From assembly GCA_029260215.1 (NCBI GenBank), contig JAJDDQ010000066.1, positions 62,001 to 126,000 of the forward strand: DNA of 64,000 nt, written 5' to 3'. The notes beneath the pieces were generated by a model. The model was given only the letters and a program-made list of their open reading frames with translations, made no database searches and was not told where the DNA came from. Shown one piece after another: positions 37,334 through 61,900 of the stretch. Source of the stretch: Phycisphaerae bacterium. Its GTDB lineage: Bacteria; Planctomycetota; Phycisphaerae; UBA1845. Position 1 is the first letter of the stretch; each line of letters begins with the position of its first letter. Both the position numbers and the translations under genes were made by a program.

Positions 37334-38566
37334 TTGAATGACTTTGATTTGATTCGACCGAAGCTTAGGCCTGTGGAGGCGTTTCCGGCGCGGGACGGTG
37401 CGCGGGAGATGTTTACCATTCGCGATCCGTCGATGGTGGCGGATCAGGAGATGACGCTTTCCGGGCCTGCGTTGTTTATCCTTATGCATTTCGATGGAAC
37501 GAACACGCTGGACGAGGTGGCGGAGAAGTTTGCCGGGCAGTTCGGGCAATCTGTTTCGCGGGGCGCTCTGGAAGAGATGGTAGAGAAACTCGATTCGGGC
37601 TTGATGCTGGAGGGGGCGCGGTTCGAGTCGCGGATGGCGGGGCTGCTCGATGCGTATCTTCGTGCGGAGGTTCGGCCTGGGTGTTATGGGCAGGTTTTGG
37701 GTGATGGTGCGGCTGTGGCTGCTTATCTTGATGAGATGATTCCGCCGCGAGACGGGGCGTCGGAGGTGGCAGCGGGCGGGCGTGTCGTTGGGTTGATCGC
37801 GCCGCATCTGGATTTCCCGCGCGGGTATCCGTGTTATGGGTTGGCTTATGGAGCGCTGCGCGGGCGACCTGTACCGAAGCGTGTTGTGATTCTGGGTACG
37901 AACCACTTCGGCAGATCGACGTCGGTGGTGGCGACGGAGAAGGCGTTCGAAACGCCGCTCGGTGTGACGGGCGTGGATGTCGATTTTCTGGAGCGTCTGG
38001 AGCGTCGGTGCGATTACGATCTGCGGGCGCATCAGTTCGATCACAAGCGCGAGCACTCGATCGAATTGCAGGTGATTTGTTTGCAGCATGTTTTCGGGGC
38101 TGACGCGTTCGAGATTGTGCCGGTGTTGTGTCACGATCCGACGGGTCCGTGCGGCGGAGCAGCGCGTGACGGGCGCGGTATGCATCTGAATGATTTTACT
38201 GCTGCGCTCGGTGAGGTTATTGCGGATGATGGTTCGGATACGTTGGTGGTGGCTGGTGCGGATATGAGCCACGTCGGCGGGCAGTTCGGGGATGATTTCA
38301 GTTTGGATGAGGCGTTTTTGTCGGAGGTTGAAAAGGGCGATCGGGCGGCGCTCGGTCATTTGGCGGCGGGTCGCCCTGAGGCGTTTGTGAAGTGCCTGTC
38401 GGATGCGGACAATGCGACGCGCGTGTGCAGTGCGGGTTGTATGTTTGTGACGGCGAGCGTGTTGAGCGATGCGAAACCTCAGGTGCTGCACTATCATCAG
38501 GCGTACACGGAAGAAGAGAACATCTGCGTGAGTTGCACGGCGGTGACGTACGTGCGCTGGAGTTGA
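37334..38566 (+). CDS. MEMO-family protein (AmmeMemoRadiSam system B) with PqqD-like N-terminal domain
   Basis: 410 residues from TTG 37334, with GAGGGG at 37323-37328. Residues about 1-100 have a PqqD-like layout (LSGPALFILMHFDGTNTLDE, then LEEMVEKLDSGLMLEG). Residues 150-410 are a MEMO domain: LIAPHLDFPRGYPCYGLAY, LGTNHFG, EHSIELQ and VVAGADMSHVG, the conserved His and Asp positions related to extradiol dioxygenases. In many bacteria this protein co-occurs with AMMECR1 and a radical SAM enzyme; neither is here. Stop overlaps the lpxK start (TGATG). Confidence 0.88.
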   Translation: MNDFDLIRPKLRPVEAFPARDGAREMFTIRDPSMVADQEMTLSGPALFILMHFDGTNTLDEVAEKFAGQFGQSVSRGALEEMVEKLDSGLMLEGARFESRMAGLLDAYLRAEVRPGCYGQVLGDGAAVAAYLDEMIPPRDGASEVAAGGRVVGLIAPHLDFPRGYPCYGLAYGALRGRPVPKRVVILGTNHFGRSTSVVATEKAFETPLGVTGVDVDFLERLERRCDYDLRAHQFDHKREHSIELQVICLQHVFGADAFEIVPVLCHDPTGPCGGAARDGRGMHLNDFTAALGEVIADDGSDTLVVAGADMSHVGGQFGDDFSLDEAFLSEVEKGDRAALGHLAAGRPEAFVKCLSDADNATRVCSAGCMFVTASVLSDAKPQVLHYHQAYTEEENICVSCTAVTYVRWS

Positions 38567-42866: not shown

Positions 42867-44825
42867 CTACACAGCAAACCCCAAAAATTCATCCAACCAA
42901 TCATCCGTCTGAAGCACACTTCTTCGCTGGGCGAAGGCTTGGCGTTCGGCGCGGGTTTGGGCGCGGTCGAAAACCCACGTCTGGCCGGTTTCGTTGGCGG
43001 GGATGTTCTTGGCGATGCGCGTGAATCCTGATGCGTGACGCTGGATTAGCTCGTCCTCCAGGCTGACGTATGCCACGGCGCTGCCGGGGTCGCCTTGTCG
43101 GCCTGCACGCCCGTAGAGCTGGCGGTCGATGCGGCCGGCGGAATGTCGCTCGGTTGCGATGACGTGCAGGCCGCCCAACTCGCTCACCCCGCGGCCGAGT
43201 TTGATGTCCGTACCGCGACCAGCCATGTTGGTGGCGACGGTGATGGCGCCGCGTGCTCCGGCTTCGGCGATGATCTGTGCTTCCTCCGAGACGCGGACGG
43301 CGTTGAGAATGCGATGCGGCAGGTCTTCGACGGTCAGCCGGGCGCTGAGGTGTTCGCTGTCGCCGACGCTTCGCGTGCCGATGAGAATCGGCTGACCCGT
43401 CGCATGCACATCGCGAATTTCGTCCACGATGGCTGTCCACTTTGCGTCGGCGGTGGTGAAGCAGCGATCGGGCAGCTTGCGTCTTCGTATCGGGCGGTTG
43501 GTGGGGATGCGCACGACGGGCAGATTGTACACGCGCCAGAACTCCGCCCGACCCTCCACGCCGGTTCCGGTCAAACCCGCGAGTTTGCCGTACATGCGGA
43601 AAAAGCGTTGAAAACTGATGCGGGCGAATGTCGATTTCGGCGGATTGATGGTCAGTCGCTCCTTGGCTTCGACGGCTTGGTGCAGTCCGTCGCGCCAGGT
43701 TCGGTCGGGCATGAGTCTGCCTGTGGATTCGTCGACGATGACGATCTTGCCTTCCTGGATGACGTATTGCTGATCGCACAGAAACAACTCGCGTGCCTGA
43801 AGAGCCTGGTTGACAAGCTCCTCGCGACGGCGCGTCGATCGCCAGATGCCACCGAGCGGCACTGCATGTTTCGCCAACATCGCTCTGCCTGTTTCGTTGA
43901 GTTCGATATCGCGAAAGCGGTGGTTGACGCGGTAGTGTTCGCCGGCGTTCAGCTCGGTGGCCAGTTCTGCCGCCTGGGCGAAAGACTCGACTTGCTCGGC
44001 ATTGGGTGCGTCGCCGGAGATGATCAGTGGTGTTACCGCCTCGTCAAGCAGGACGGAATCGGCTTCGTCGATGATAGCGCAGTGCAGGCCTCGATGGGCG
44101 AGTTGGAGCGAGCGATTGCGTCGATCGACAATGTTGCCGACCAGCACGTCGGTGAGGCTGCGTCGCCGGCCGAGGATGAGGCTGTCGCGGAGAAAATCTG
44201 CGGCGGCTTCTTTGTTGGTGCAGTAGGTGACGTCGGCGAGGTAGGCCTGTCGTCGCTCGGGCGGGGGCGTGTCCTGCTTCACGCATGCGACACGCAGGCC
44301 GCTGAATGCGTAGATGCTCTTCATCCAATCCGCGTCGCGTTCAGCTAAATAGTCGTTGACCGTGATGACGTGGCATCCCCTGCCTCGCCAACCGGCTGCG
44401 ACGGCTGCGATGGCGGCCACCAGTGTTTTCCCTTCTCCGGTGGCCATCTCGATTACGCATCCCGCGTCGACCGCGAGCGCCCCGGCGACTTGCACGGCGA
44501 AAGCGCGTTGGCCTAGTTGGCGAAACGCGACCTCGCGAATGACGGCGAAGGCGCGGTCGATGTCTGCGGGTGTTTCTCGGCTGCGGCGGAACAGGGCGTG
44601 CAGGTCGTCGCACGCTTCGCGCAGGCGCGCGTCGGAGAGTGTGGTGAATTCGGACTCCGTCGCGACGATCCGCCCAGCGCGTTGGAGAAAGTGTGATCGA
44701 CGGCGGCGGATGCGCTGGGCGATGCCAAGCCCGCGCTCCCAGACCACGTCGAAGCCCTTGGCCAACGGACGCCGCTGGACGGGCTGGGAAAGCATGCGCC
44801 AGGTTAGACTCGGTACGGTGGTCAT
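42867..44825 (-). CDS. SecA paralogue, shortened
   Basis: 652 residues from ATG 44825, four bases after the stop of the upstream M50-HlyD gene; the longer open frame to 45026 runs inside that gene and is ignored. Walker A MATGEGKT at 127-134, VNDYLAERDA at 156-165, DEAD at 253-256, then NMAGRGTDI and YGRAGRQGDPG of the second motor domain. It stops just where canonical SecA begins its helical scaffold (LQTDDWLDEFLGFAV), so the scaffold's long part, helical wing and zinc-binding tail are missing; ordinary SecA is 800-900 residues. It is therefore a second, specialised SecA, presumably energising export of a particular substrate. Confidence 0.9.
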   Translation of the reverse strand: MTTVPSLTWRMLSQPVQRRPLAKGFDVVWERGLGIAQRIRRRRSHFLQRAGRIVATESEFTTLSDARLREACDDLHALFRRSRETPADIDRAFAVIREVAFRQLGQRAFAVQVAGALAVDAGCVIEMATGEGKTLVAAIAAVAAGWRGRGCHVITVNDYLAERDADWMKSIYAFSGLRVACVKQDTPPPERRQAYLADVTYCTNKEAAADFLRDSLILGRRRSLTDVLVGNIVDRRNRSLQLAHRGLHCAIIDEADSVLLDEAVTPLIISGDAPNAEQVESFAQAAELATELNAGEHYRVNHRFRDIELNETGRAMLAKHAVPLGGIWRSTRRREELVNQALQARELFLCDQQYVIQEGKIVIVDESTGRLMPDRTWRDGLHQAVEAKERLTINPPKSTFARISFQRFFRMYGKLAGLTGTGVEGRAEFWRVYNLPVVRIPTNRPIRRRKLPDRCFTTADAKWTAIVDEIRDVHATGQPILIGTRSVGDSEHLSARLTVEDLPHRILNAVRVSEEAQIIAEAGARGAITVATNMAGRGTDIKLGRGVSELGGLHVIATERHSAGRIDRQLYGRAGRQGDPGSAVAYVSLEDELIQRHASGFTRIAKNIPANETGQTWVFDRAQTRAERQAFAQRRSVLQTDDWLDEFLGFAV

Positions 44826-44829
44826 GGGG

Positions 44830-47001
44830 TTAAATCTTGAATCGCTGTTGGAAAAGTTGTGCGATTGCTCGCCACCATTGGTAGGCCAGCGGCTTGGGCG
44901 TGAGCGTGTGGCGGACGACGACACGCTGACCTGCGAAGAGTCGATCGAACGAGTCGGGCGTGATACGGATTTCGAAGAACGCTTCAACGGATTTTTGACC
45001 GCTGGGGTCGCTCGCTTCGATCTCAACGTTGCCCCCGGCGGCTAAACCGAGCGCAGCCGATGGAAGCTGTTCCTGTCCGGCGGGCAGTAATTCGGTGACT
45101 AAGCCCGGCACTTCGATATCAGGGCGCGTGCGCACGCGAATTTCAACCGTCGAGGATGCTTCGGTCATGAGCAAGGCCGCTTTGAACTGATCAGCCGTCG
45201 CGCGAATGATGAAGCCTTCAAGGTCCGCGACGGTGCCGACGGGTTGGCCTCTGCGGAAGTAGGCACTTTGGGATCGTTCGATGTCGGGCGCGATCCACGT
45301 TCCGTCAAACGGTGCTTTGATCGTGAGGTTGGCGAACTCGGTGCGCTTTCGGGCGATCTGCTCATCGAACGCGTCGCGCTGCTCGGTGAAAACCTGGGCG
45401 GAGGGTACGTCGCTGTCCCGAACGGCCCACCGCCTGCGCGTTTCGACACGCTCGCGGTCCTGTTCGAGCATGGCCAACTTGGCGCGAAGCTCGGCGCTGT
45501 CTGCCTCGATGAGTGAACCGTTTTTCGGATCAACGCGTTGACCGGACTCGGCAGCCGTTCGCACGAATCCGTCGGTCGCGACATGGATGACCGCGAGTCG
45601 CTGCGGCTCCACAATGCCGTCCGTACGCAAGTGGTCTGGAAAGGGGACCAAGCTGATGATGACGAACAATGCAATGGCTGTGCCGGTCGTTGAATAAATG
45701 GCCCGAGAGCGGACGCGACTGAGTTCCGCGTTGTTGGCCAGGTAGCGGATGAGTTTTCCGATGGGCATGACGACCCAGGTGACAAACGCGACCACAGCCA
45801 GGATGGCCCCCACGAAGAAGAGCTTGTCCGCGACGAACAGCAGGATGAAAATCGAAATCATCGTGCGGTAAATTGTGGACGCGATCGCGTAGACGAACAG
45901 CCAGAGTCGCTCGCCGCGCACGACCGGGCTGATGACGTTTCGCGCTCCCCACACATAACGCTTGATGAGAAAATACAGGTAATCGCGGCTGCGCTGGGCG
46001 AGGTTGGGTATTTCGAGCAGATCGGAAAGAATGTAGTAGCCGTCGTAGCGCAGCAGCGGGTTGCCGTTGAACATGAGCGTGGACACGCCGGCGACGAACA
46101 TGACATTGTACGCCAACGTGTGCGTGAGCGTGGACTCGGACGTATTCGCCCAGACGACAGCGGCCAGTCCCGCGACGGCGAATTCCACGATCATCCCGCC
46201 CGACGCGACCATCGCCCGCTGCCACTTGCTGCGGAATACCCACGAACTTGACGCATCGACGTAGGGGATGGGCGTGAACACCAGCAGCATGATGCCCATC
46301 TCGTGTACTTCGCCGCCCGCACCGTTCAGCACGCCGAAACGCTTGCAGCAAAATCCGTGGCCGAATTCGTGAAGCAGCTTTGTGGCGACGAAACAGACAT
46401 AAAGCCAGGGAATGTTTTCGCGACTGAGCACGCCGGAACTGCGGTCAACAAGCTCCTCCTCAAGCCCAGCCAGTTGAAACAGACCGGCGAACAGGATGAC
46501 GCCGATGACGATCGCGCCAGGCCAGGAGAAAATCAGGCCGAAGATTCCGACCCAGCGGTTGAGAAAATGATCCGGGTCGAACAGTGGAATGCGAATAAAC
46601 AGCAGGTTGGAGAACATGCCCCGCAGTTCCCGCTGCACACGCTGAGTGTATCGGCGGAATAGCGATTCCGTATCGCCGGGCAATTCACCATGCAGCATAT
46701 TCGACGCATACAGTTGGCCCAACAGGCGAATGACTTCGCTTTGCGTCGGAGCGTCGTCGCCCTGCATCTCGTTACAGATTTGCCAGGCCTCCGCCACCGT
46801 GCGTCGCCCATCCAGCAGGCCGATGAACCCATAGCCCGCTGCATTGAGCCGGTAGAATGCGTTGCTCGACGCATCCTGCGCGACATACCACGTCTGCCCG
46901 CGAAATTGCTGGCGATGAATCTGCACAGTGGTAGCCGGTCGCAGATGCAGATCGGCGACCTTGTACCACGATTCACTGAATGTCGGTCTCGCAACGGGCA
47001 T
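44830..47001 (-). CDS. PqqD-like / M50 metalloprotease / HlyD fusion membrane protein
   Basis: 723 residues. Residues about 18-105 have a PqqD-like (RiPP recognition element) layout: YRLNAAGYGFIGLLDGRRTV at 50-69. Membrane segments start at about 151. Site-2-protease zinc motif HEFGH at 211-215, with a third-ligand candidate Asp320 in NPLLRYDG. After six to eight membrane segments, residues about 480-700 resemble an HlyD adaptor (coiled coil 495-545, IKAPFDGTWIAP, then a beta barrel). Predicted inner-membrane protease-exporter adaptor. Upstream of the secA-like gene on one transcript; 275 bases of repeats separate it from the GAF-HlyD gene. Confidence 0.87.
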   Translation of the reverse strand: MPVARPTFSESWYKVADLHLRPATTVQIHRQQFRGQTWYVAQDASSNAFYRLNAAGYGFIGLLDGRRTVAEAWQICNEMQGDDAPTQSEVIRLLGQLYASNMLHGELPGDTESLFRRYTQRVQRELRGMFSNLLFIRIPLFDPDHFLNRWVGIFGLIFSWPGAIVIGVILFAGLFQLAGLEEELVDRSSGVLSRENIPWLYVCFVATKLLHEFGHGFCCKRFGVLNGAGGEVHEMGIMLLVFTPIPYVDASSSWVFRSKWQRAMVASGGMIVEFAVAGLAAVVWANTSESTLTHTLAYNVMFVAGVSTLMFNGNPLLRYDGYYILSDLLEIPNLAQRSRDYLYFLIKRYVWGARNVISPVVRGERLWLFVYAIASTIYRTMISIFILLFVADKLFFVGAILAVVAFVTWVVMPIGKLIRYLANNAELSRVRSRAIYSTTGTAIALFVIISLVPFPDHLRTDGIVEPQRLAVIHVATDGFVRTAAESGQRVDPKNGSLIEADSAELRAKLAMLEQDRERVETRRRWAVRDSDVPSAQVFTEQRDAFDEQIARKRTEFANLTIKAPFDGTWIAPDIERSQSAYFRRGQPVGTVADLEGFIIRATADQFKAALLMTEASSTVEIRVRTRPDIEVPGLVTELLPAGQEQLPSAALGLAAGGNVEIEASDPSGQKSVEAFFEIRITPDSFDRLFAGQRVVVRHTLTPKPLAYQWWRAIAQLFQQRFKI

Positions 47002-47276: not shown

Positions 47277-49139
47277 TCAAATCCACAGCTTCATACGAAC
47301 CCAGTTCACCAGTTCCCGCGTCCATATCCACGCATAGCTTCTCTGGTCGATGTCGATCTTGGCCACGCCTGCCATGCCCGGTCGAAGCCATGCGCGGGTT
47401 TCCTGCAAGCGGGCGAACACTCTGAAGACGTTGCGACCTTCGACAATCTCCGCCATCGGGTTGATGCGTTCGACGACGAAGGGAATCTTGTCACCGGGGA
47501 AGGAGGCCGTCGCGAGCAGGCCGGTTTGCCCGGTTTGCACGTCGGCGATCTGGTCTTCGGGGATGGCCAACTCCGCACGCAGGGCGTCGAGCGGAGCCAC
47601 TTCAAACAGAATGTCGCCGGTCGCGAACGGCGCACCGAGTTGTCTCTCCAGATCACCCGCGACGACGATGCCGCTGATGGTCGGGCGGATGTCCGCCTGA
47701 GAAATCTTGTATTCCACGAGATCGATCTGGGCGCGAACCTTGGCAGCCTCGGCCTCAGCCACCTGCGCTTCTGCTTGTTCACCCTGACGCCGCGCGAGGG
47801 CTGCGCGTTTCAGGTTGGAGGCTTCGTCTGCGCGATACGATGCGAGTTGCAGTCGCAGTTCCGACGTATCAATTGTTGCGAGCAGGGTTTGGTTTCCCTC
47901 GACCGTTTCGCCGATCTTGGCTGTTACGGTTTCGAGGTATCCGTCGAACGGTGCCGGCACGATTTGGCGGACCGTCGGCTGGATTTCGAAGGACGCCTCC
48001 GCGCGGTATGTGCCCTGGGCGAACGTGACGAACAATCCGCCAGCCAGAATCCCCAGGGCGGCGGCTTTGATCCACGTGTGCGTCGGCCCAACAGCCTTGG
48101 CGATGCCCTTGCGGAGCCACTTCGCCAAGCGAGCGCCGAACCAGCGATCATTGTCATGCAATTCGAGCAACCGGGGGCCGCATAGATCGCAGGTCAGACG
48201 CAGGACGTTGAGCTCGTGGGCGTCGAACGATTCGTCTAGCGGGCGGTCGAGCGTCAGCACCGCGCGCACTTGGCCGTCCTTGCGAATCGGCATGCTGCAC
48301 ACGGTCAGCGGGCCGTGACGTCCGGTGTAGTGTTCGGCTGCGCGTGCGATGCAGGGAGCGTCTTCGAGCGGCGGATGCACGACCTCGATGTCCTGGTCGA
48401 GACACTCTTCCATGACGGATTCGATCGTCTGGACGAGCTCCATCTTGCGGTCGAATTTTTCCGTGTGGCTCATCGCATGCATGACAACATAGCGGCCGGT
48501 AAGAAAGCCGACCGACGCCCGCTGTGCATGCCATCGGGAGGCGGTCTCATTGCAGAAGCTCATGGCTGCGCTGACGAAGCGGTCTGCCCGATTGACGGCA
48601 GCCACCATCTCCAGCGCGACCTGCAATTGACGCAGATCGTCGTCGCGACCTTGCAGGGTCAGGCGCATCTCGTAGAGGCTGAGCAATTGAATGGAAAGTT
48701 CGAGTCGCTCGCGCCGGGAATCTATGTCGTCGCGATTGTGAGTGGCTAGCACAAATGCCGCCGCCCCGCGCACGCCCGACCGACCACGGATGGGAATCAG
48801 CAGGACATGGTGCGCCGGTCGCTGGCCGTAGAGTTCCTCAGCCGTTCTCAGCGGAATGAGGCTTGTCTTTTGCGATGAGATTGTGTTCGGCAGCGCTTCA
48901 GCCGCCACCGCAAGCCAGACCGGTGAGGGGCTTCCTGCCTCAGGCTGGGGGTGGACGGCGATGACATCCGGTTGGCCTTGGGGGGTGCTGCGGAAGACCG
49001 CCCCGCCGTCGGCGTCGGCGAACGAACACTGAGCCGCGAGCAGCCTGATGAGGAATTCCTCCGGCTGCCCTTCAAACTCGATAAGATGTTCGAGCAGTGC
49101 CACCCTTGCGGCATGTTCGGATTGAGCGGCTTCTACCAC
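47277..49139 (-). CDS. GAF-domain HlyD membrane-fusion protein
   Basis: 620 residues from GTG 49139; the frame upstream is closed by the DUF3467 stop. Residues 15-160 and 170-325 look like two GAF domains (second: CNETASRWHAQRASVGFLTG, then LTVCSMPIRKDGQVRAVLTL). A membrane segment at about 356-374 leads to an HlyD part: VPAPFDGYLETVTAKIGETV, a short Ala/Glu coiled coil (425-465) and a beta barrel with LGAPFATGDILFEVA. GAF modules on a membrane-fusion protein suggest a cytoplasmic ligand controls the exporter (inference). Downstream of the DUF3467 gene. Confidence 0.87.
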   Translation of the reverse strand: MVEAAQSEHAARVALLEHLIEFEGQPEEFLIRLLAAQCSFADADGGAVFRSTPQGQPDVIAVHPQPEAGSPSPVWLAVAAEALPNTISSQKTSLIPLRTAEELYGQRPAHHVLLIPIRGRSGVRGAAAFVLATHNRDDIDSRRERLELSIQLLSLYEMRLTLQGRDDDLRQLQVALEMVAAVNRADRFVSAAMSFCNETASRWHAQRASVGFLTGRYVVMHAMSHTEKFDRKMELVQTIESVMEECLDQDIEVVHPPLEDAPCIARAAEHYTGRHGPLTVCSMPIRKDGQVRAVLTLDRPLDESFDAHELNVLRLTCDLCGPRLLELHDNDRWFGARLAKWLRKGIAKAVGPTHTWIKAAALGILAGGLFVTFAQGTYRAEASFEIQPTVRQIVPAPFDGYLETVTAKIGETVEGNQTLLATIDTSELRLQLASYRADEASNLKRAALARRQGEQAEAQVAEAEAAKVRAQIDLVEYKISQADIRPTISGIVVAGDLERQLGAPFATGDILFEVAPLDALRAELAIPEDQIADVQTGQTGLLATASFPGDKIPFVVERINPMAEIVEGRNVFRVFARLQETRAWLRPGMAGVAKIDIDQRSYAWIWTRELVNWVRMKLWI

Positions 49140-49175: not shown

Positions 49176-49547
49176 TTACTCCGGCTTGCGGCGTTTCGCG
49201 ACGTTCAATTCGAGCGCCCCGAACTGTTCCTCGTATCGTCGGATCTGCTGCCCGAGCGAGATGGCCATTCGTTTAGCTGAGTAGTAATTCATCACAATGC
49301 GGTCGTTGACCTGAAAAACGCAGTTTACTTCGTTTTCCGCTGGTTTGGTGTTCTGGTCGATCAGGTTCATGCCGAAGTCGATGATGACCTCCTCGGCTGT
49401 GAATTGCGTTCGGAAACTGTTGGCGTAGCTGGTCTTGAGATCGCGCTGGTCGATGCGCAACCGCACTTTGCGCCCGCCGGCCTGGTCTTTTGCCTGCTGT
49501 TCGATCTGTTCGTCAGCCGCGGTATCCTGCTCTTTGTCCTTGGCCAT
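49176..49547 (-). CDS. DUF3467 family protein
   Basis: 123 residues from ATG 49547 with AAGGTT upstream. An N-terminal charged stretch (KDKEQDTAADEQIEQQAKDQ) precedes the domain: LKTSYANSFRTQFTAEEVII, DFGMN and NDRIVMNYYSAKRMAISLGQ. DUF3467 proteins are small and soluble with no settled function. First gene of the minus-strand export cluster and divergent from the giant gene across 400 bases. Confidence 0.85.
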   Translation of the reverse strand: MAKDKEQDTAADEQIEQQAKDQAGGRKVRLRIDQRDLKTSYANSFRTQFTAEEVIIDFGMNLIDQNTKPAENEVNCVFQVNDRIVMNYYSAKRMAISLGQQIRRYEEQFGALELNVAKRRKPE

Positions 49548-49947: not shown

Positions 49948-52900
49948 ATGCGCACGGCGAATTCTGCGCGCGATGGTGAGCGTCCGTTTTTCGAGCGGCT
50001 GGAGCCGAGGCTTTTGCTCAGCGCCAGTCCGCTCGGTTTGGACGAACAGGATGCGGGACTTGAATCAACGGCTGCTTTTGGTGCGGTCATTGACGAGACT
50101 GCGCAGCAAGCTCTGACTGAGGGCCTGCTCGATGTGACGTCGTTGTTCGAGACCGTTTCCGCTTTGGACGACTATGCGCAGCAATTGCCGCTGGTCGGCG
50201 GTTCGCTGGCAGAGCGTCTGTCCCCGTTCGCCGCTTTCGCGGAAGATGTCTTCTCTCCCATCGGCAACTTTTTCACGGTTTTTCAATCACCGTCGGTTGG
50301 TCAGTTCGAATCTTTCTTCGAGGCGATGGGCTGGGCTGTTGATTTCAACAATGCTGCCAATGTGTTGTCGTTCACGGTGGGCGTTGACGGGGGTCAAACG
50401 TCGACCGATCCCGTTGGTTTGGACACCAGCGCGACTGTGCCTATTGGTGCGGGTGAGATCAGTTTGGGTCTGGACCTTCCCGATTTCGAGGTGACGACGG
50501 GTCTCGATATCGATCTGACTGTCGCGATCGATTTGGATACGAACAACGTCACGCTCGACGTCAACAGTTTCACCGCCGGGGTGGATGCAGCCGCGTTGAA
50601 TTTCGATGCGTCGGCTACGCTCGGGTTCCTGGGGTTTGGCGTCGCGGGTGCTTCGACGGCGTTCGATGCGAACGCGAACATCACGATCAACAACGGCAAC
50701 CCGATCGACACGGACAATTTGGGCGGCGTCAGTATCGGTGTTGACGCGACCGGTTCCCTGACGGCTTCTCTCCCGCTGGAGTTGACGGCTGGTCTGGGTG
50801 ATCTTCTGGTGGTCGGCGGGAACCCGCAGATCGACATCAGCATTCAGAATATGTTTGACGACCCCTCGCCGGTGTTCACCGCCAAGGGTCTGGACAACGT
50901 TCTCGATTTCCAGGTGGCGAGTCCGGGCGCGGTGCTCAGCGCATTGAATCAGTTGGGCGGATGGTTGAGTGCGTTTGGCGAAAGCGAGGTTTTCGATCTC
51001 GCGTTGCCGTTTGTGGACGGTCTGGACCTTTCGTCGCTGGACCTTGCGAGCGCGCTTGCGGGCGGTATTACGGATCAATTGCAGGCTGTTCGTCTGACGG
51101 CGCCCGGGAACGCTCCGACCGGCAACGTCAATGTGCCTTTCACGCTGAACATCAACAACGAGCAGGACATTTCGATCCTGCTTTCGACGACGGCAGACAC
51201 GGTGGACGACCTTGTGGCTGCGATCAACGACCGCCTGGATAGCAGGATTCTTGCCCTGTTCGTGGATTCGAACGAAGAGATTGATTTCCAGGGGCAGATT
51301 GAGGCGGTCAACGCGGGCGGAAGCGTCGAATTCGTGGCCGACCCCAGTACTGTCTCCAGCCTGACGGTGACGGATGCAACGGCTTTGGGTTTCGACGCGG
51401 ATCAGGAAGCCAGCGGGCTGGGCTTTAATTCAGCGCAGTCGCTTGCGTCACTGTTGGCCAACTTCCTCGGTGTCGATCCGTCGGTCATTGACGCGACGTA
51501 CGACCCCGCCACCAAGGAACTGACGTTTACGGTTGGTTTCACGGAAACGCTGGATGAGTTTAAGCAGACCCTCGATTTTGACTACGATCTCGGCGCGCTG
51601 GCTGGCGTGAACACTGCGAGCGAATTGTCGCTGATGTCCACGGTTCAGAGCGGGTTTACGTTTGGTTTCGTGCTGGATGAGCTGGGCCAGAATTTCACGC
51701 TGACCGAGAACACGCTGGTCAACACGGTTGTTCAGCTTGGCGGTTTTGACAAGAAAGATTTTTCGGACTTCATCAAGGCGGGCGTTCCCGAGTTGGTTAT
51801 TACGCTGCGCGACGGAACGCAGCAGTTTATTGATCTTGACGCTGCGGCTGCACCGGGCGCGACGATCGCCACTGTCAAGAATCTCATCGAGAGCCAGTCT
51901 GATGTCACTGTGGTGGTCAACAGCGTTGAGGATCGCCTGGAACTCGTTCATCCGGAGGACGTGAACGGTAGCGAAAAATTCACGGTGCGGGCGGCCAACG
52001 GTTCGTTCGCGATTTACGCGCTCGGCCTGTTGGGCGAGGGGATCGATGAAAACGGGCAGCACGTTATCAAGGGCAATGTCCTGCACGGCGAGACGCTGGC
52101 GGATCGCATGTTCCTGCGCGACGACGCCTTCATCGGCGGGCGATTGGACGTCATGGCGGCTGACATTGATGCATCGGCCATGTTTGGATTCGTCGAGGTT
52201 GGTGTCGTGGACGGCGGGGCGGCTGGCTCGGCTGAGATCATGGTGCAATTGGCTGACCCGGATGGCGACGGGAATATTTTCATCAGCGAGTTAGTCGATT
52301 CGCTATCCAATGTGAACGGCATTGTTGAGTCGTCGACCATCACCGGTGAGGTGATGGCCAACCTGCCGGTCAGCGTGGACATTCTGGGCATTCAATCCAG
52401 TCCGAACCCGATGGATACGCCGCGTTTTTTGCTGACCTGGTCGGCGGACGATCCGAGCAACATCGATGTGCAATCGAGCAATCTTGAAGACCTGCTCGAC
52501 TTCCGCAATTTGGGTGTGAGCGACATCGTCGCAGCCTTGAATGGCCTTGTGGGTTTCCTGGGGGATGTCGAGGGTTTCAGCGACATCTTCAATTTTGAAA
52601 TTCCGTTGTTGGATTTCAGCATTACCGACGCTTTGGAATTCGCGGATCGTTTTGCGGCTGACGTGCAGAGTTTTGAACAGGCACCCGCGTCAAGTCTTCA
52701 AAATCTCGCGACGAGCCTGGAGCAGCGGCTCGGGCTGATGCCGGGAACGGTGGACCTCGGATTCACGTTGCCGTCGCAGCCGCAGGAGGATGGGCTTAGC
52801 GATCTGGTGCTTGAGATCGGATTCGATTGGGGCAGGGCCTTCGAAGAATCCATGCCATTGAATGTCGATCTGGCTGAGCTGTTCGGCGGCGATGAGACGC

Positions 52901-55900
52901 TTTCGCAGTTGGGCAATGTGGTGGATGTCGGTGGCACTTCGTTGCTGCAGGTCAAGGGCAGCGCGATGTTCAACGTCGATCTGGGCATCAATCTGTCTGA
53001 CCCAACGAATCCCGTGCCGTTTGTGGCCGACACGACCGGGGCGACCTTGACGCTGGGGGCGGGTGCGAACGATCTGGATCTCACGGCGGCGCTTGGACCG
53101 TTGGGCGTGTTCATCAACGGCGGGCAGATCGCTCTGGGCCGGGGTGACAACGTGAATGAGCATGCGGAATTCACGATTGAACTGAACGACAATGACGGCA
53201 ACAACGACGGGCAAATCAGCGTTTTGGATATTGGTTTCGACAACGCCGTCGTGGACTTGAACGGTCAGGTGTCGGCTAACTTGCCGTTCGATTTCCCGCT
53301 CGCGGGCAATTCCATCGGAGCGTTGAATTTCGGCATCAGCGACTTGCGCGACATTCCGGGCACGACGATGCTCAATTCGACGCCCGATTTCTCGAGCGCC
53401 CTGGACAATCTTTCACTGCGTCAGAATCTGTCTGCGATGGTCGATGGCTGGATCGGCTTGATGACGCTTTTGGAAGATGCGCTGGATGGCGAGGTGTTCG
53501 GGATCGACCTGCCGTTTATCGGTGACAATCTGGAGTCCGCCTCCAACTTCTTCGGCGAGATGCGTGATGCGGTGATCGGTGTGCTCGATCCGAGTGAGCT
53601 GATGACCGATGCCTCGGCGTTGCCGGCCAACTTCGCGGGCGCGCTGCCGAACGTCGATCCGGTCGAGGTGTTGCGTCAGGCGATTTTCGACGGCTTGAGC
53701 GATGTGGGTTGGTTGTTGGATTCATCTGGTTCAGGCGAACAGTCTGACAGCATTGACGATGTTGTTATTGTCGAGAACGACGACTCCATCGAATTCCAGA
53801 TGCGCATCGGGCAGTCGATATACGACAACGTGCCGTCGGATTCCGGTTTCGATCTCGACATAGGCCTGCCCGGTCTGGGTCTTGAGGCGGAGGGCGAGTT
53901 CGAATTTACGTCGCAGTTCGGGTTCGATCTCGGATTCGGCATCAGTCTTGACGACGGGGTGTACTTCGATTTCGACCCGTTTGGTGACGGTGACGATATT
54001 TCGGTGGACATTCGCGCGAGCGTGCCGGGTTTCACCGCCACCGGCGAGCTGCTGTTTTTGCAGTTGGACGTGAATGACGAAGACCTGAACGGCGACGACG
54101 GGGATCAGTTCGGCCCCAGTGGTGTTGATGCGCAGTTCGCCATCGACGTGGACGGGGAAGCCGGTGACGGACGCATTCTGTTGACCGAGTTGTTCAGCGG
54201 TTTTTCGGGACTGGAAGCGTCGGCTTCGTTGAATGCGGCGCTCAATCTGGAGGCGGTAGCGAGCTTCGGCGGTGAAGCTTCGTTCCCATCTTTGGATTTC
54301 GATTTCAATCTGGATTGGGGCGCGACGGCTAGCACAGCCAGCGGGTTTGAGTTTGATTCCGCACCGAACATCGGCTTCAACAATGTGCGCATCGACTTCG
54401 GTTCGTTCATCGGGGACTTCCTGGGGCCTGTGGTCGAACAGGTTGACACCGTGCTCGGACCGACCGGTGACGTGATTGAAATTCTGACCACGCCGATTCC
54501 GGTCATTTCCGATTTGGGCGGCGACATAACACTGATCGATATCGCGGGGTTCTTCGGTGAGGTGCGCGAGGTCGAGCCGTTCTTTGACGCCATCGTCGAT
54601 GTCGTCGAAATCATCGATCTTATTTCCGCCGCTGACGGGGAGTTTTTCCTCGAACTGGGCAGCTTCCAGGTTTCGGGCGAAGCAGCGATGAACCCGAATA
54701 TGCGCGGCCAACTGATGCCGATGAATCCTCAGGCGAATCCGGACGCGATGGCCAACGCGATGAACGCGCCCGGTGACCTGGGCAATATCTTCACGAAGGC
54801 GACCCAGGTCGGCGAAAACGGTGCCAGCCCCGATTTCGGTGACAACCCCGACGGTGGGTTCAGTTTCCCGATCATTGACGATCCGACTATGGCGTTCCAG
54901 CTTCTGCTGGGCGGGAACCCGACGCTGGTCGAATACGACTTCCCCGAGTTTTTCCTGGGCTTTGAGTACAGCCAATACTTCCCGATCATCGGCCCGTTGG
55001 GTGCGACAATTACGGGACGGGCTGGGGCGGAACTGGACTTCGGGTTTGGTTACGACACGTTTGGTCTGCGTCAGTTCGCCGAGAGCGATTTCAACAACTT
55101 TGGCGCGATCTTCGAGGGCTTTTTCATCAAGGACCTTGACGATCAGGGCAACGATGTGCCGGAGCTGACTTTGTTGGCGGAGATCGCTGCGGGCATCGAG
55201 TTGAACCTTGGCGTGGCGCGTGCTGGTGTGGAGGGCGGCATACGGGCGACGGTGGAATTCAATCTGAACGATCCCGACGACGACGGCAAGGTGCGCGTCA
55301 ACGAGATCATCGAGAATTTCAACCTTGGGCCTGTGTTTATCTTCGACATCAGCGGCGAAGTCTCAGCCTTTCTGCGTGCGTATTTGAAGGTTGTGATTCC
55401 GTTGGGCATCGGTGAAATCGTTCTGTGGGATTATGACCAGACGATTGTGGACGTGACGCTGTTCGAGTTTGAACTGGACAGGCCTGACGAGACGCCGGTG
55501 CTGGCGGACATGATGGGCAGCATGCTCAATCTCAACGTCGGTGCCCGCGCGGGCAACCGCATGTTCGGGGATATGTCGGACTCGGCTGAGAACTTCATCA
55601 TCAGGCCCGGCCCGAACGCGCAAGAGGTGATTGTTGAGTCTTTCGGTCTGCGTCAGACGTACAGCGGCGTGAACAGCATCATGATTGAGGATGCGGGCCA
55701 GGGCGACGACACGATTATTGTGGCTGGCGGGCTTGATATTCCGGTTGAGATTCACGGCGGGAGCGGCAACGACAAGATCGTGGCTGGCAACGGCGGCGGG
55801 TCGTACTACGGCGGCGCGGGCGACGATGAAATCATCGGCGGCGCGGGTGACGACGATATTTTTGGTGAGTTCGGCAACGATATTCTTCGCGGCGGGCCGG

Positions 55901-58900
55901 GCGACGACACGATCGAAGGCGGCCAGGGCGACGATCAGATTTTCGGCGATACGGGCGCGGATGTGCTCAGGGGTGACGAAGGTATCGACACGATCGAGGG
56001 CGGTCGCGGCAACGACATGATCTTCGGCGACGCGGGGAACGACATTCTTCGCGGGCAGGAAAATGATGACGCGGTCTTCGGCGGGGCGGACAACGACACG
56101 ATCGAGGGCGGTCTGGGTGCGGACGCGTTGATCGGCGACGACGGGATGGCTACTTTTGATACGGTGGCCAACAAGTGGGTGGTCGATCCGGGCGATCTCT
56201 TGGGCAACGGCAACGACACGATTCGCGGTAATGATGGGTTCGATGTGCTCTACGGCGTGGGCGGCAATGACGATTTGCGCGGCGGCGGTGGCGGCGACGG
56301 ACTGTTTGGCGGGGCGGGCAGCGATCTTTTGCTGGGTGAATCCGGTAACGACAATCTCGACGGTGGCGATGGCAACGACGACGGGTCGCCGTTCGGGATG
56401 GCGGCTGGCGTGATCGGCGGTGGGGGCAGTGACACGCTGCTGGGTGGCTGGGGTGCGGATGTCATTTTCGCGGGTGATACAGCGGCTGGCAACGGAATCG
56501 AGGGTGAGAATCATTCGATTTTCGGCGATACAGATGATCCGAATGCGTCCGTCCCGGCGGGCAGCAACGCGGACATCATTTTCGGCGATGCTGGCGATGA
56601 CGCGGTCGATGGTGGCCCTGGAGCGGATCAGATCACGGTGTATATCGGTGACGCGACGATTACCGGGCGCGCGGGCGGTGACACGATCAACGTAGGCCCC
56701 GGTGCGGGTGAGGTGTTCGTCGACGGCGGCGGTGAGAACGACGACATCAACATCAACGCGGGCAGCGGCAGCGTGACTGTCTTTGGCGGGTCTGGTTCGG
56801 ATGACATCGATCTTGATGCGGATGGTGTGATTTCGGTCGACGCGGGCGCGGGCAATGATTTCGTCACCATCACCGGCGATGGTGATGGCGGTGTGCTTGT
56901 GATCGGTGGGGGCGGTGTGGATGACATCGACATCGGCACATTGTTCGGTGTCCTTGCGGGCGGTGGTGATGTGACCGTTTTCGGCGACGGTGTGAACGCC
57001 GCGCAGCCGGACGGTGCCAACGACGACATTCGCGTGTTCGCAGCCGGCGATGTCGACGTGGATGGCGGTGAGGGCGGGGATTCGATCATCCTGCGCAGCA
57101 CGCAGGGCGCGATCACGGTCGATAGCGACGGCAATGCTCCGGCGGCTGCCGCGGGTGCGGATACGGTCAATATCAATGCTGCTCTGGCGGTCGATGTGGA
57201 CCTTGGCCCGGGTGACGATCTGCTGAGCGTTTTGGGCGCGGTGGGCGGCAATGTGGACGTGATCGGTCGCGGCGGAGCGGACACGATCAACCTCGGCAGC
57301 GTGTCCAGCATTCTCAACGCGCCGAGTATCGACGTCTTTACGGACGGTCCAAACGGTCCGTTGGCCACCGGCGGCAACGATGTTCTTAACATCTTCGGTG
57401 TCGGTGCGATTCTGGTGGAAGCCAACGAAGGCGACGACACGGTCAATATTCGCGGCGGCAGTGCCCCGGTGACGGTGATCGGTGACGGCGGCGTGGCACT
57501 CAACGCCGCCGGTGTGGACGATATCGACATCGATGCGGATGGTCTGATTAGCGTGTTCGCGGGACCGGCCAACGACTTTGTGACCATCGTGGGGGCGGGC
57601 AACGGGAATGTGAAAGTCGTCGGTGATCGCGGACGCGACGATATCGACATCGGCAACGCTTCCAATCGCCTGGCCACCGGGTCGATTGAGGTCTACGGAG
57701 ACGCGGAGAACGGCCCTCTCACCGGTGGGGGCAGCGACACGATCGACATCTACGCCGACGGCGAGATTTACGTTGACGCCGGTGAAAATACGCTGGCTGG
57801 TCCTGAGTCGGGTGGATCCGATCCGACCGTCGACTACGTCACCATCGTCAACGACGGTGATGAGCCGATCACCGTGTTCGGTGACGGCGAAGACGAGCAG
57901 AATGTTGCGGGCGGTGTGGATGTGATCGACATCACAGCCGGCAGCGGTTTGATTACGGTTTTCGGCAGCCAGGCGGGCGACGATATTGACATTGTCGCGA
58001 GCGGGAATGGGAACATTCTGGTCTACGGCGACGGCGTGGGCGACATCATGACGCCGGGCGACGGATTCGGGGATCCGCTGGTTCCGGGTGGTGACGACAC
58101 CATCGACATCACCACGCTGGGCAACAGCACGGTATACGCCGACGAGGGCGACGACATCGTGCGCATCGTCGGGCCTGGCAATGATAATGTTGTGGCTGGC
58201 TACGGTGACGACTTCGTTTACGCGGGCGAAGGGGCGGACATCATCATCGGCGGGTTTGGCGACGACGTCATTTGGGGTGATGACGAGAATCAAAGCGAGG
58301 GCGGCGACGGCAGCGATGTCATCTGGGGCGGGCAGCTTCCGGTCGCGCCGGGGCTGAACGGATTCGACTGGGCGACGTTGTCCGACTTTGGCCGGCAGTT
58401 CTTTGACGATCCGACCGACTTCATTCGCGACCCGGGTTTCGTTCAGGCTGAGGATTTCAACGCCACGACGTACGAAGAGCGCTACGGTGTTTTGCGCATC
58501 ACACCGCTGGGCGGTCAGGGTGTGAACCTGTCGACAGCCTCCTGGAACGGCACGCAATTTGATCCGCAGGGCAATCCGATCGGTGACGGCGTCGACACAA
58601 TCTACGGCGGCCCGAGCACGGACTGGATTTTCTCCGGTTGGGATGCGGACAACGTTTTTGGTGGCGACGGGAATGATTATCTGGATGGCGGCATCGCGGA
58701 CGATCGTATTCGCGGCGAAGGCGACGACGACATTCTGCGCGGGGGGCTGAACAGCGACATTCTTCGCGGCGGCGAGGGCATCGATCAGCTTTACGGCGAT
58801 CAGGGCGATGACTTTCTGTTCGCCGATCAGGGACGACTGTTCGACGCATTCACGCCGGTGGAATGGCTGGCCAACCCCGAGTGGAATAACGATCAAGCCG

Positions 58901-61900
58901 GTCAGCGTCTGTCGGGCGGGGCGGGCTTTGATTATCTGTACGCTTACGCGCCGAGCATCAACGTCGCGAGCGAGTACAACCAGATCGGCGACGAGCTTCG
59001 CGGCGGCGGCGACGGTGACTACCTCTACGGCAATTTGCGTCAGGACTTGCTCTTCGGCAACGACGGCAACGATTATCTGAGCGGCGACTATCTTGAGGGA
59101 CCGACCTACCCGCGCAACACGCAATCCGCTCTGAATCAGCCCCTGCCGCTCGCGCCTGGGGCGGCGGAGTCGGGCGAGGTGGTTTATGTCGGGGCAGCTG
59201 ACCGGTTGTACGGCGGGTTCGGACAGGATCAGCTTTACGGCGGCGGTGGAAACGACACGTTGTTCGGCGGGCGGGATTCGGACTGGATCGAGGGACAAGA
59301 CGGTAACGATCGCGGCTATGGCGGTAACGGTGTCGATATTCTCGTGCTCGATGTGGCCGGTGACTTCAGAGTAGCTGGCGATGATTTCGACGGCTTCTTC
59401 GGCAACGAGATCGAAGGCGACGTTGACGACGCGGGCGAGGTTGACATTCTCCTGGTCGAGGGCGACAAGGCGGGAACGTTTCTCAATCCCGTGTTCGACG
59501 ACGAAATTATCCTGACAGAACAGGATGTAGCTGTCACCGGCACGCTCAGCCTGCCCGAGGACGGGCGTCTGGGCGAAGGCGTGGCGGCATCGTTCACGCT
59601 GTCGGTGGCTGGCGGGGGTGTGCCGAACTCCACCGTGACCGTGGTGGTCAACGACGATCCAACCAACGAAAGCATCAACGATCTGGTGGCCGACGTCGGA
59701 GCGGCGTTGACGGCGGAACTGGTCAACGTTGGTGTGCCGGCTGGTCTGGTTCAGGTGGTTCGCGCGGGCGATCGCCTGCGAATTCAGACGGCTGGTCTGG
59801 GCGAGTTTGCCGAAATCCTCATCAGCGATACGAACGCGACCACCAACAACGTGCTGGGCATTGACGAGACGGTGTTCTTCGACGCAGCCGTCACCGGGGC
59901 CGATGACTTGCCGCTGGACGGTTCCTTCGGCAGCGACGTCAATGAAACGTTCACAGCTCTGTTTTCCCTGACACTCAACGGCACGGGCGTGAACAATCAG
60001 ACGGTGTTCGTCATGGTGCCGGACGATTCCGAAAGCATCACGCAACTGGTCAACGCCGTGGACGATGCCATCAACCTGGCACTGTCCAACGCGGGGTTAG
60101 ATGAAAACATCGCGTCGGCGGTCCGCGTTGGCGATCGGCTGCGCATTCAGACGAACGATCTTGGCGTGACGGGTTCCATCGCAGTCGGCAACACCAACGC
60201 AACTGCCCAGAACTTCCTCGGCTTGACTGATGATCTTTCCGGTGTTGGCGATGCGGTCAGACCCGGCGTGCGGTTGATCAATGTCGATTACGGCGGGCGA
60301 TCGATCGGTGTCAGTTGGCGCGATATTAACGGCGTGCCGTTGGTCGAGCAGTTCCAGATTTCCGGACTGATGGGCGACGACGTGATACAGGCCGTCATCA
60401 GTCAGACCACTATTGACGAGTTGAAGCTGGTTACCCCCGGCGATCCGTGGGTCACGGTTATCAGCGGCGGGCCTGGGGATGATCAAGTCACCGGCAGTGC
60501 CGGTCGCGATCGCATCGAGGGCGGACCGGGAAGCGACACGCTTTTCGGGATGGCCGGCAACGATCGTTTATGGGGCGATTTCGGTGTGGGTGATCCGCTT
60601 CTGGATGTGGACAATCTCTTCGCCGGTCAGGGCAACGATGATCTCGTGGGCGGCGTCGGAGCCAACTTCATGTACGCCTGGTCTTCGGACCCCGCGGCTG
60701 ACAGTCCGTTCGGTGTGATCGATCCGGTCACGGGCGAGTTCGAGGACACCGGGTTGAACCGCATGCTGGGCAACGACAACCCGGACCGGGCCGACGTGTT
60801 CTACGGCGGTACGGGCCTGGATTTCATGTTCGGCAATGGCGGAGGCGGGGTTGACGGCGATCAGCTGATCACGCGGGATGGCGATGTTTTTCAGGACGAG
60901 GACGGACTGCTCTTCTCCGACGATACGTGGAAGGAATACGCCCGCGACACGGATCAGGTGTGGTACCTTGGCGCTTCCGCGACGGACGACACCATCGAGA
61001 TCGACTTCGTCACCAACCCGTTCAATCCGTTCTTCGGCAGACACCAGGTGACACTCAGCGCGGACGGCTCGTTCGACCCGCGTTTCAGTGGTTTTGACAA
61101 TACGACCGCCTACGACGCCGGCGGCGAAGCGACGCACGAACCTGTGGACGAGCGCTACGACGCGGAATCGCAGTTGATGGTCGAAGCGATCGAGGTGGAC
61201 GACAATCAGGGTCAGGACGACCTGGCTGCCAATGTTCCGATGGACGTTCGCGATCGTCTGGTCGATCCGTTCGAGCTTTCGCCCTACGACCTTATCAACG
61301 AATTGATCGGCCAGGAGGACTTCCTGGCCATCATCATCGACGCCCTCGGCGGGGACGACACGATCATCGTCGGCGAGACGGTGCAGACCTCTGTCTGGGT
61401 GGATGCGGGCGACGGCGACGACACGGTACTCATCGAAGAGCAGCTGTCGTTCCTGCCGGATGAGACTGACGAAATCGGCCAACGCAACGACATTCGCGAA
61501 AACGCCTACCCGCTTGGCGAGACGGATGAAGACGGAAACCTCGTCGAGTCTATTGGCTTGAACAACAGTGCGTTCGGCGGCTTGACGATTGACAGTGCCC
61601 GGGCTGACGCACCGGATATCGACTGGTACCGGTTCATTCCGCCCTCGACGACGCCCGGCGATGAGCTTGAGCTTATTCCGTTAAGCGACAATCTCGACGT
61701 GAACCTGTCATTCTCTCTCGAAAATGCGTCCGGTCAGCCGGCGGGAGAGGCGGCGGTCGCGGGCAATCTGTCGTTGCCGGTGGATGGCAGACTGGGTACG
61801 GGCGTGACAGCGCAGTTCACGATCAACAACACACTCGTCACCGTCGTTGACGATCCGACCAACGAAACGCGGCAGGATCTGGTGGCAGACGTCAACGCAG

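What the first reader, a model, noticed from the sequence alone, without database searches (positions are those of the whole stretch)
44830..47001. PqqD-like recognition domain fused to an M50 protease and an HlyD adaptor
The first 105 residues match the PqqD/RRE layout known to bind leader peptides in RiPP systems. It is joined to a zinc protease (HEFGH at 211-215, Asp320) and an HlyD-like periplasmic arm in one chain. A leader-binding domain on a protease-exporter suggests recognition of a leader, and the divergent LEPR-XLL N terminus is the obvious candidate. This would be a new use of an RRE-type domain, for a giant protein rather than a small peptide.
Basis: partly seen in the sequence, partly recalled or inferred. 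Interest (0 to 1): 0.74.

Follow-up and report, generated by a model that had tools for sequence, protein, structure and literature searches.

The report
Leader-reading protease-exporter for giant proteins
A bacterial membrane protease carries the kind of small domain that normally reads the front tag of peptide antibiotics, and its gene repeatedly sits beside genes for enormous surface proteins that share one short front tag, which suggests that this machine recognises, trims and exports giant proteins by reading that tag.

Summary
The 723-residue protein at 44830-47001 (-) has an RRE/PqqD-type domain (AF2 pLDDT 91; PDB matches include lasso-peptide RREs solved with leaders, and PqqD), an M50 core (HEFGH 211-215, Asp320) and an AcrA/MacA-like arm. 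Its operon also encodes DUF3467, GAF-HlyD and a SecA-like ATPase without the scaffold/wing domain. Most of this machine was described in 2015 (PMC4452313), role 'completely unknown', with no RRE or substrate named. RRE-M50 proteases that remove leaders are known from daptides (PMC10036551). Added here is the substrate link. 38 of 39 LEPR-XLL-positive Pseudomonadota (85 of 299 overall) and 18 of 19 LEPR-XLL-positive Planctomycetota (67 of 294 overall) have this protein; 24 of 51 LEPR sites in Pseudomonadota lie within 15 kb of it. In LEPR-model-negative Pseudomonadota, 17 of 22 systems neighbour a large protein with a divergent leader, LExRxxFD(A/G). The shared motif resembles the daptide leader motif ELExMEAP. 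Most likely the RRE binds the LExR leader, M50 cuts it, and HlyD arms with TolC guide the giant out. Binding, cutting and export are inferred; a co-fold could not be run here.

The parts
46672..47001 (-). RRE/PqqD-type domain, residues 1-110 of the M50-HlyD protein
   Evidence: AF2 and fold searches; Pfam PqqD 40-102 below cut-off
45637..46599 (-). M50 (site-2-protease-like) membrane core, about residues 135-455; HEFGH at 46357-46371, Asp320 at 46042-46044
44833..45636 (-). HlyD/AcrA-like periplasmic arm, about residues 456-723
42867..44795 (-). SecA-like ATPase without the SecA scaffold/wing domain
47277..49139 (-). GAF-HlyD adaptor (one membrane span by hydropathy)
49176..49547 (-). DUF3467 protein, role unknown
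   Evidence: Pfam 59.9 bits; next to relatives of the operon
49999..50025 (+). LEPRLLLSA motif: the proposed leader read by the RRE
49948..64000 (+). Giant LEPR-XLL protein with RTX-like repeats, about 8165 residues; runs past the window to about base 10445 of L009

Best explanation
This is the leader-reading inner-membrane component of a dedicated exporter of giant surface proteins that has no ABC transporter of its own. The cytosolic RRE domain binds the LExR leader (consensus E-A/P-L-E-P-R-x-L-(L/F)-(S/D)-(A/G)), about 30 residues from the start of the giant. This holds the giant at the M50 intramembrane protease, which cuts at or just after the motif. The unfolded chain passes along the HlyD arms of the M50-HlyD and GAF-HlyD proteins and a small periplasmic adaptor to a TolC-type channel; in many systems a truncated SecA-like ATPase feeds it, and folding of Ca-binding repeats outside may pull it. 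Shown: the three-domain protein and its predicted fold, the conserved operon, the co-occurrence and linkage with LExR giants. Inferred: binding, cutting, the cut site, the route and the energy source.
For: RRE fold; protease residues kept in 179 of 179 (HExxH). Co-occurrence: 38 of 39 LEPR+ against 85 of 299 in Pseudomonadota and 18 of 19 against 67 of 294 in Planctomycetota (Fisher 3e-23 and 6e-12). Linkage: 24 of 51 LEPR sites within 15 kb; operons with giant, adaptors, M50-HlyD, in some SecA-like and TolC. Second leader type beside 17 of 22 LEPR-model-negative systems, against a shuffled rate of 9 in 21,180. One or two readers with up to 17 LEPR genes in a genome (G220). Homologous RRE-M50 protease with a similar leader motif in daptides. 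Leaders are not Sec-like: maximum 12-residue hydropathy median 1.28 in 89 leaders, against 2.0-2.5 for nine of ten TolC/adaptor N termini. ABC ATPase-like ORF within 8 kb on the same strand in only 4 of 80 loci.
Against: No RRE-leader interface was computed. The fold also occurs in proteins that I do not know as leader readers (GdmN Z 10.0, NO66 and MINA53 Z 6-8), and Foldseek E-values are weak. 4 of 20 Planctomycetota genomes with a close M50-HlyD have no LEPR match, G165 and G525 have LEPR without the M50 protein, and 49 of 67 and 47 of 85 M50-HlyD genomes lack an NF012209 match. 5 of 22 checked systems had no LExR ORF nearby. The RRE profile is weak or missing in 11 of 179 M50 cores, mostly of the FD-leader branch. 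Fisher tests ignore phylogeny. The FD-leader systems I checked have no SecA-like gene beside them, so their energy source is unknown.
Confidence: 0.7

Rival explanations
1. The RRE-like domain is a docking domain for the SecA-like ATPase or the GAF-HlyD protein, or only structural. The leader is read by another component.
For: The same fold serves other roles elsewhere (GdmN, NO66 rows); SecA-like and GAF-HlyD are as tightly linked as the giant (71 and 76 of 80 loci).
Against: The domain is kept in systems without a SecA-like gene; its homologues in daptide clusters go with a similar leader.
Confidence: 0.15
2. M50-HlyD and the giant are linked through a shared envelope function, but M50 cuts another protein (a regulator or a misfolded adaptor), and the LExR end is a surface anchor or retention element.
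For: M50 proteases often cut membrane regulators (general knowledge); no cut of a giant is shown. GAF domains suggest signalling (view of PMC4452313).
Against: The motif is N-terminal, short and shared across otherwise unrelated giants; it tracks the M50 protein across two phyla.
Confidence: 0.08
3. The giants leave by Sec or by an ordinary ABC-type T1SS encoded elsewhere.
For: RTX repeats in the window giant; the second paragraph of evidence is from general knowledge: RTX proteins usually leave by T1SS.
Against: No Sec-like hydrophobic core; adaptors and TolC are encoded with M50-HlyD; ABC ATPases rarely nearby (4 of 80).
Confidence: 0.04
4. The RRE reads a small RiPP-like peptide encoded nearby; the giant is a bystander.
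For: RRE-M50 fusions are known from daptide clusters.
Against: The linked protein is large in two phyla and with two leader types; the protein scores 163 against the daptide model's cut-off of 300. Small ORFs were not searched exhaustively.
Confidence: 0.03

Closest known systems
Secondary SecA_DEAD / T1SS-related locus (Kamneva, Poudel and Ward 2015, PMC4452313)
   Same: M50-HlyD, GAF-HlyD, HlyD/biotin_lipoyl protein, SecA_DEAD protein lacking most of SecA_SW, sometimes an OEP protein; ATPase and pore roles proposed there
   Different: In the passages and sections read, no PqqD/RRE domain, no LEPR leader and no giant substrate is named; the SecA-less branch with the FD leader was not in the sections read
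Daptide leader protease MpaP (RRE fused to site-2 protease, PMC10036551; NF041824)
   Same: N-terminal RRE and M50 core; conserved leader motif ELExMEAP; RRE-dependent leader removal stated; NF041824 matches residues 22-412
   Different: No HlyD arm; substrates are small peptides made into RiPPs; score 163 against a cut-off of 300
LEPR-XLL domain NF012209 (LEPR-8K)
   Same: N-terminal motif of giant proteins; the window giant passes its cut-off
   Different: As far as I saw, an annotation of the motif only; here it is tied to a reader, and to a divergent FD type that the model does not find
Type I secretion of RTX and Bap/LapA-like giant adhesins
   Same: HlyD-type adaptors, TolC-type channel, RTX or Bap-like giants
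   Different: ABC ATPase rarely nearby (4 of 80); N-terminal leader and intramembrane protease instead

Membership tests
RRE / PqqD domain | Winged-helix fold, three strands then three helices | tested here: met
RRE / PqqD domain | Pfam PqqD above its gathering score | tested here: not met
   20.0 bits against 23.4 for the window protein; 19 of 30 relatives match at E <= 0.01
RRE / PqqD domain | Binds a leader peptide in the b3/a3 groove | not testable with these tools
   no co-folding or binding assay on hand
Peptidase M50 / site-2 protease | HExxH and a distal Asp in membrane helices | tested here: met
   proteolysis itself not testable; Pfam M50 22.6 bits, below its cut-off
HlyD / periplasmic adaptor | Barrel-sandwich and hairpin fold | tested here: met
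LEPR-XLL domain NF012209 | Score above the curated cut-off, near the N terminus of a large protein | tested here: met
   21.7 bits against 17
Secondary SecA_DEAD T1SS-related locus | SecA_DEAD protein without SecA_SW, with M50-HlyD and GAF-HlyD neighbours | tested here: met
   searches compared
Daptide intramembrane protease NF041824 | Score above the equivalog cut-off of 300 | tested here: not met
   163.2 bits
Type I secretion system | ABC transporter in the locus | tested here: not met
   motif scan: 4 of 80 relatives' loci have an ABC ATPase-like ORF within 8 kb on the same strand; the window operon encodes none among the proteins scanned
Type I secretion system | TolC/OEP outer-membrane channel | tested here: inconclusive
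   beside relatives; in the window's genome OEP matches lie on other contigs

The most novel reading that the evidence does not exclude
LExR is a general N-terminal export signal for giant proteins across many Gram-negative phyla, from planctomycetes to E. coli plasmids. It is read by an RRE and cut by a fused intramembrane protease in a secretion route without an ABC transporter, and it shares an origin with the leader reading of daptide-type RiPPs.
Probability: 0.55. Interest if true: 0.87.

Novelty: new variant of a known kind. Interest (0 to 1): 0.73.

Why it matters
It would give a function to a secretion-related locus whose role was called completely unknown in 2015, and a reader to the LEPR-XLL motif. 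It would extend RRE-guided recognition from small peptides to proteins with open frames of up to 19,427 residues, among the largest that bacteria make. A tag of about nine residues that sends giants out would be directly testable in laboratory strains.

Tried and rejected
Papers: ten searches of the open-licence PMC library. Seen: PMC4452313 abstract, passages and sections 14, 16, 17 and 18; passages of PMC10036551, PMC12710340, PMC7470986, PMC7730722 and PMC10868602; PMC9611531 in the listing only. None of these links an RRE to M50-HlyD or to LEPR giants. bioRxiv is not held and most subscription papers are missing, so I claim only that I did not find it. One search was swamped by leptin-receptor papers.

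Idea that RRE-less systems would have giants without LExR: abandoned, because E. coli, Azospirillum and Variovorax M50-HlyD proteins keep a PqqD-like stretch by eye and their giants keep LExR.

Idea that S-type leaders always go with a SecA-like gene: only a tendency. In the deduplicated set 9 of 10 S/N-type and 2 of 12 D-type leaders lie in a locus with a SecA-like hit; the own-genome C21 operon is S-type and has no SecA-like match.

Dropped before counting: one of 11 printed systems (G503, a 221-aa ORF) was a chance match; a real one was found downstream. L135's match was not counted. Motifs in ORFs under 350 aa were left out of the leader table; E and R there are fixed by the search pattern. 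A start codon at 46926 suggested by my codon score was rejected because relatives align from residue 1.

Limits of the counts: the genome search scored at most 3 M50 candidates per genome in most genomes, and one search did not list all matches; for I copied the M50 places mainly of LEPR-positive genomes, so linkage is a lower bound. The 80 loci are the best 80 of 555 confirmed. The 20 genomes (16 with NF012209) were chosen because they hold the M50 protein. Flanks of 10 kb cannot reach the N terminus of giants encoded upstream, so 13 of 80 loci with an LExR ORF (my count from its list) is also a lower bound.

Full report
What is there. The ORF at 44830-47001 (-) encodes 723 residues. Its N-terminal ~110 residues are predicted as three strands followed by three helices, in the full chain (pLDDT 88.6) and alone (pLDDT 91.0, pTM 0.83). 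In the PDB the first five Foldseek rows are lasso-peptide RRE proteins solved with their leaders (probability 1.00, but E 0.018-0.045). VIA-align gives Z 7-9 to TbiB1, PqqD and the PbtF RRE, with GdmN-type enzymes slightly higher at Z 10. The middle is an M50 core with HEFGH 211-215 and Asp320, invariant in 30 of 30 relatives. The tail is an AcrA/MacA-like adaptor arm. By my reading seven AF2 helices span the membrane, which would put the RRE in the cytosol and the arm in the periplasm; a simple hydropathy scan marks only four, so the topology is inferred.

Surroundings. The minus-strand cluster reads DUF3467 (49547-49176), GAF-HlyD (49139-47277), this gene, and a SecA-like ATPase (44795-42867) that has the DEAD, cross-linking and P-loop domains but no scaffold/wing match. 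Divergently, from ATG 49948, runs a giant of about 8165 residues with RTX-like repeats and LEPRLLLSA from residue 18. The same genome has a second set on contig C21: a 2888-residue frame with LEPRILLSA, a 343-residue frame that looks like a small adaptor by eye, GAF-HlyD and RRE-M50-HlyD, with no SecA-like match. A separate, longer SecA-type frame lies on C84.

Distribution. A scan of genome contigs gave 555 confirmed relatives; the best 80 come, by record title, from Planctomycetota, Verrucomicrobiota, Nitrospirota, Desulfobacterota, several classes of Pseudomonadota, Elusimicrobia, Spirochaetes, Fibrobacter and others. GAF-HlyD matches are in 76 of these 80 loci and SecA-like in 71. All 104 near-complete SecA-like ORFs in the fetched loci end close to the end of the window's (median 4, maximum 76 residues beyond the alignment). 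HExxH is in 179 of 179 M50 cores, and the RRE profile at E below 0.001 in 168.

Substrate link. NF012209 (LEPR-XLL) is found in 19 of 294 Planctomycetota; 18 of them have the M50 protein, against 67 of 294 overall. In Pseudomonadota it is in 39 of 299, 38 of them with the M50 protein, against 85 of 299 overall. Fisher p is 6e-12 and 3e-23 without correction for phylogeny; within the window's own class (22 genomes) all 10 LEPR-positive genomes have the close form, against 2 of 12 LEPR-negative. Of 51 LEPR sites in Pseudomonadota, 24 are within 15 kb of an M50-HlyD, 2 are farther away on the same contig, and 25 have none listed on their contig. Annotated alphaproteobacterial plasmids show the operon directly, with giant genes of 12 to 39 kb. 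Some genomes have one or two readers listed and many LEPR genes: G220 has 17 and G242 has 8, which fits recognition in trans.

A second leader type. M50-HlyD systems of genomes without an NF012209 match were checked in 22 places (20 genomes). Ten have a large ORF upstream and seven downstream that begin with LE(P/Q/A)R followed by a FD(A/G) ending; of the other five, two lie on short contigs. Named examples are an Azospirillum DUF4347 protein (LEPRFMFDAA), a 16-kilo-residue Variovorax protein (LEARYMFDAA) and a Bap-like protein on an E. coli plasmid (LESRQLFDGA). That E. coli M50-HlyD gene is in 24 of 5,426 E. coli genomes. Across 89 distinct leaders in the fetched loci (E and R are fixed by the search pattern), L is at 0 in 82, P at +2 in 59, L or M at +5 in 87, S/N at +7 in 61 and D in 28; the 25 residues before the motif carry a mean net charge of +3.1 (81 leaders). 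Shuffled ORF starts match at 9 in 21,180.

How it probably works. The homologous daptide protease is an RRE fused to a site-2 protease; the precursors share ELExMEAP, and the paper states that an RRE-dependent intramembrane peptidase removes the leader. In that work L(-7) and M(-4) were essential for a reaction that depends on the RRE of another enzyme, MpaB. Lining up L-(E/D)-P-(M/R) in the two leaders is my own comparison: a lead, not a test. By analogy the RRE here holds LExR and M50 cuts near the (S/D)(A/G) end. The HlyD arms, the small adaptor and TolC make the path; the SecA-like ATPase, where present, is the likely motor (the ATPase and pore ideas are from PMC4452313). Leaders lack a Sec-type hydrophobic core, and ABC ATPases are rarely near.

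What is new. The machine parts were reported in 2015 and the RRE-M50 fusion in 2023. LEPR-XLL is a named domain, and an ~8000-residue Vibrio LEPR-XLL protein is mentioned in print. The link between reader, leader and giants, and the SecA-less branch with the FD leader, I did not find in print (searches named under Tried and rejected). Hence 'new variant of a known kind'.

What is not shown. No interface, no cut, no export. The energy source of systems without a SecA-like gene is open. More than half of the M50-HlyD genomes have no NF012209 match (49 of 67 and 47 of 85); the FD leader explains many in the sample, but this was not measured over all genomes, nor in Planctomycetota.

Noticed in passing
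L325 (G374:C30), L326 (G478:C30), L327 (G347:C32): RRE and M50-HlyD lie in two overlapping frames joined at a run of ten A in all three loci (two of them near-identical), and the M50 frame shows no obvious start codon: slippage, a phase-variable joint, or a homopolymer error.
   Followed up: partly
G220 and G242: 17 and 8 LEPR-XLL matches but only 2 and 1 M50-HlyD matches listed in these genomes: a shared reader with many clients would be a good test case.
   Followed up: no
G374:C115: A LEPR open frame of 19,427 residues, the longest seen here; its contig has no listed M50-HlyD.
   Followed up: no
window 37373-38566 (+): A Memo-like protein whose N-terminal ~100 residues look PqqD-like by eye; not tested.
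   Followed up: no
L190:20263-21084 and L206:3058-3855: SapC family genes lie next to two of the alphaproteobacterial operons or giants.
   Followed up: no
L195 (E. coli plasmid NZ_CP081687): A SecA-less system with TolC, small adaptor, HlyD, M50-HlyD and a 4459-residue Bap-like protein; the M50-HlyD gene is in 24 of 5,426 E. coli genomes, 21 of 25 places on plasmids.
   Followed up: partly
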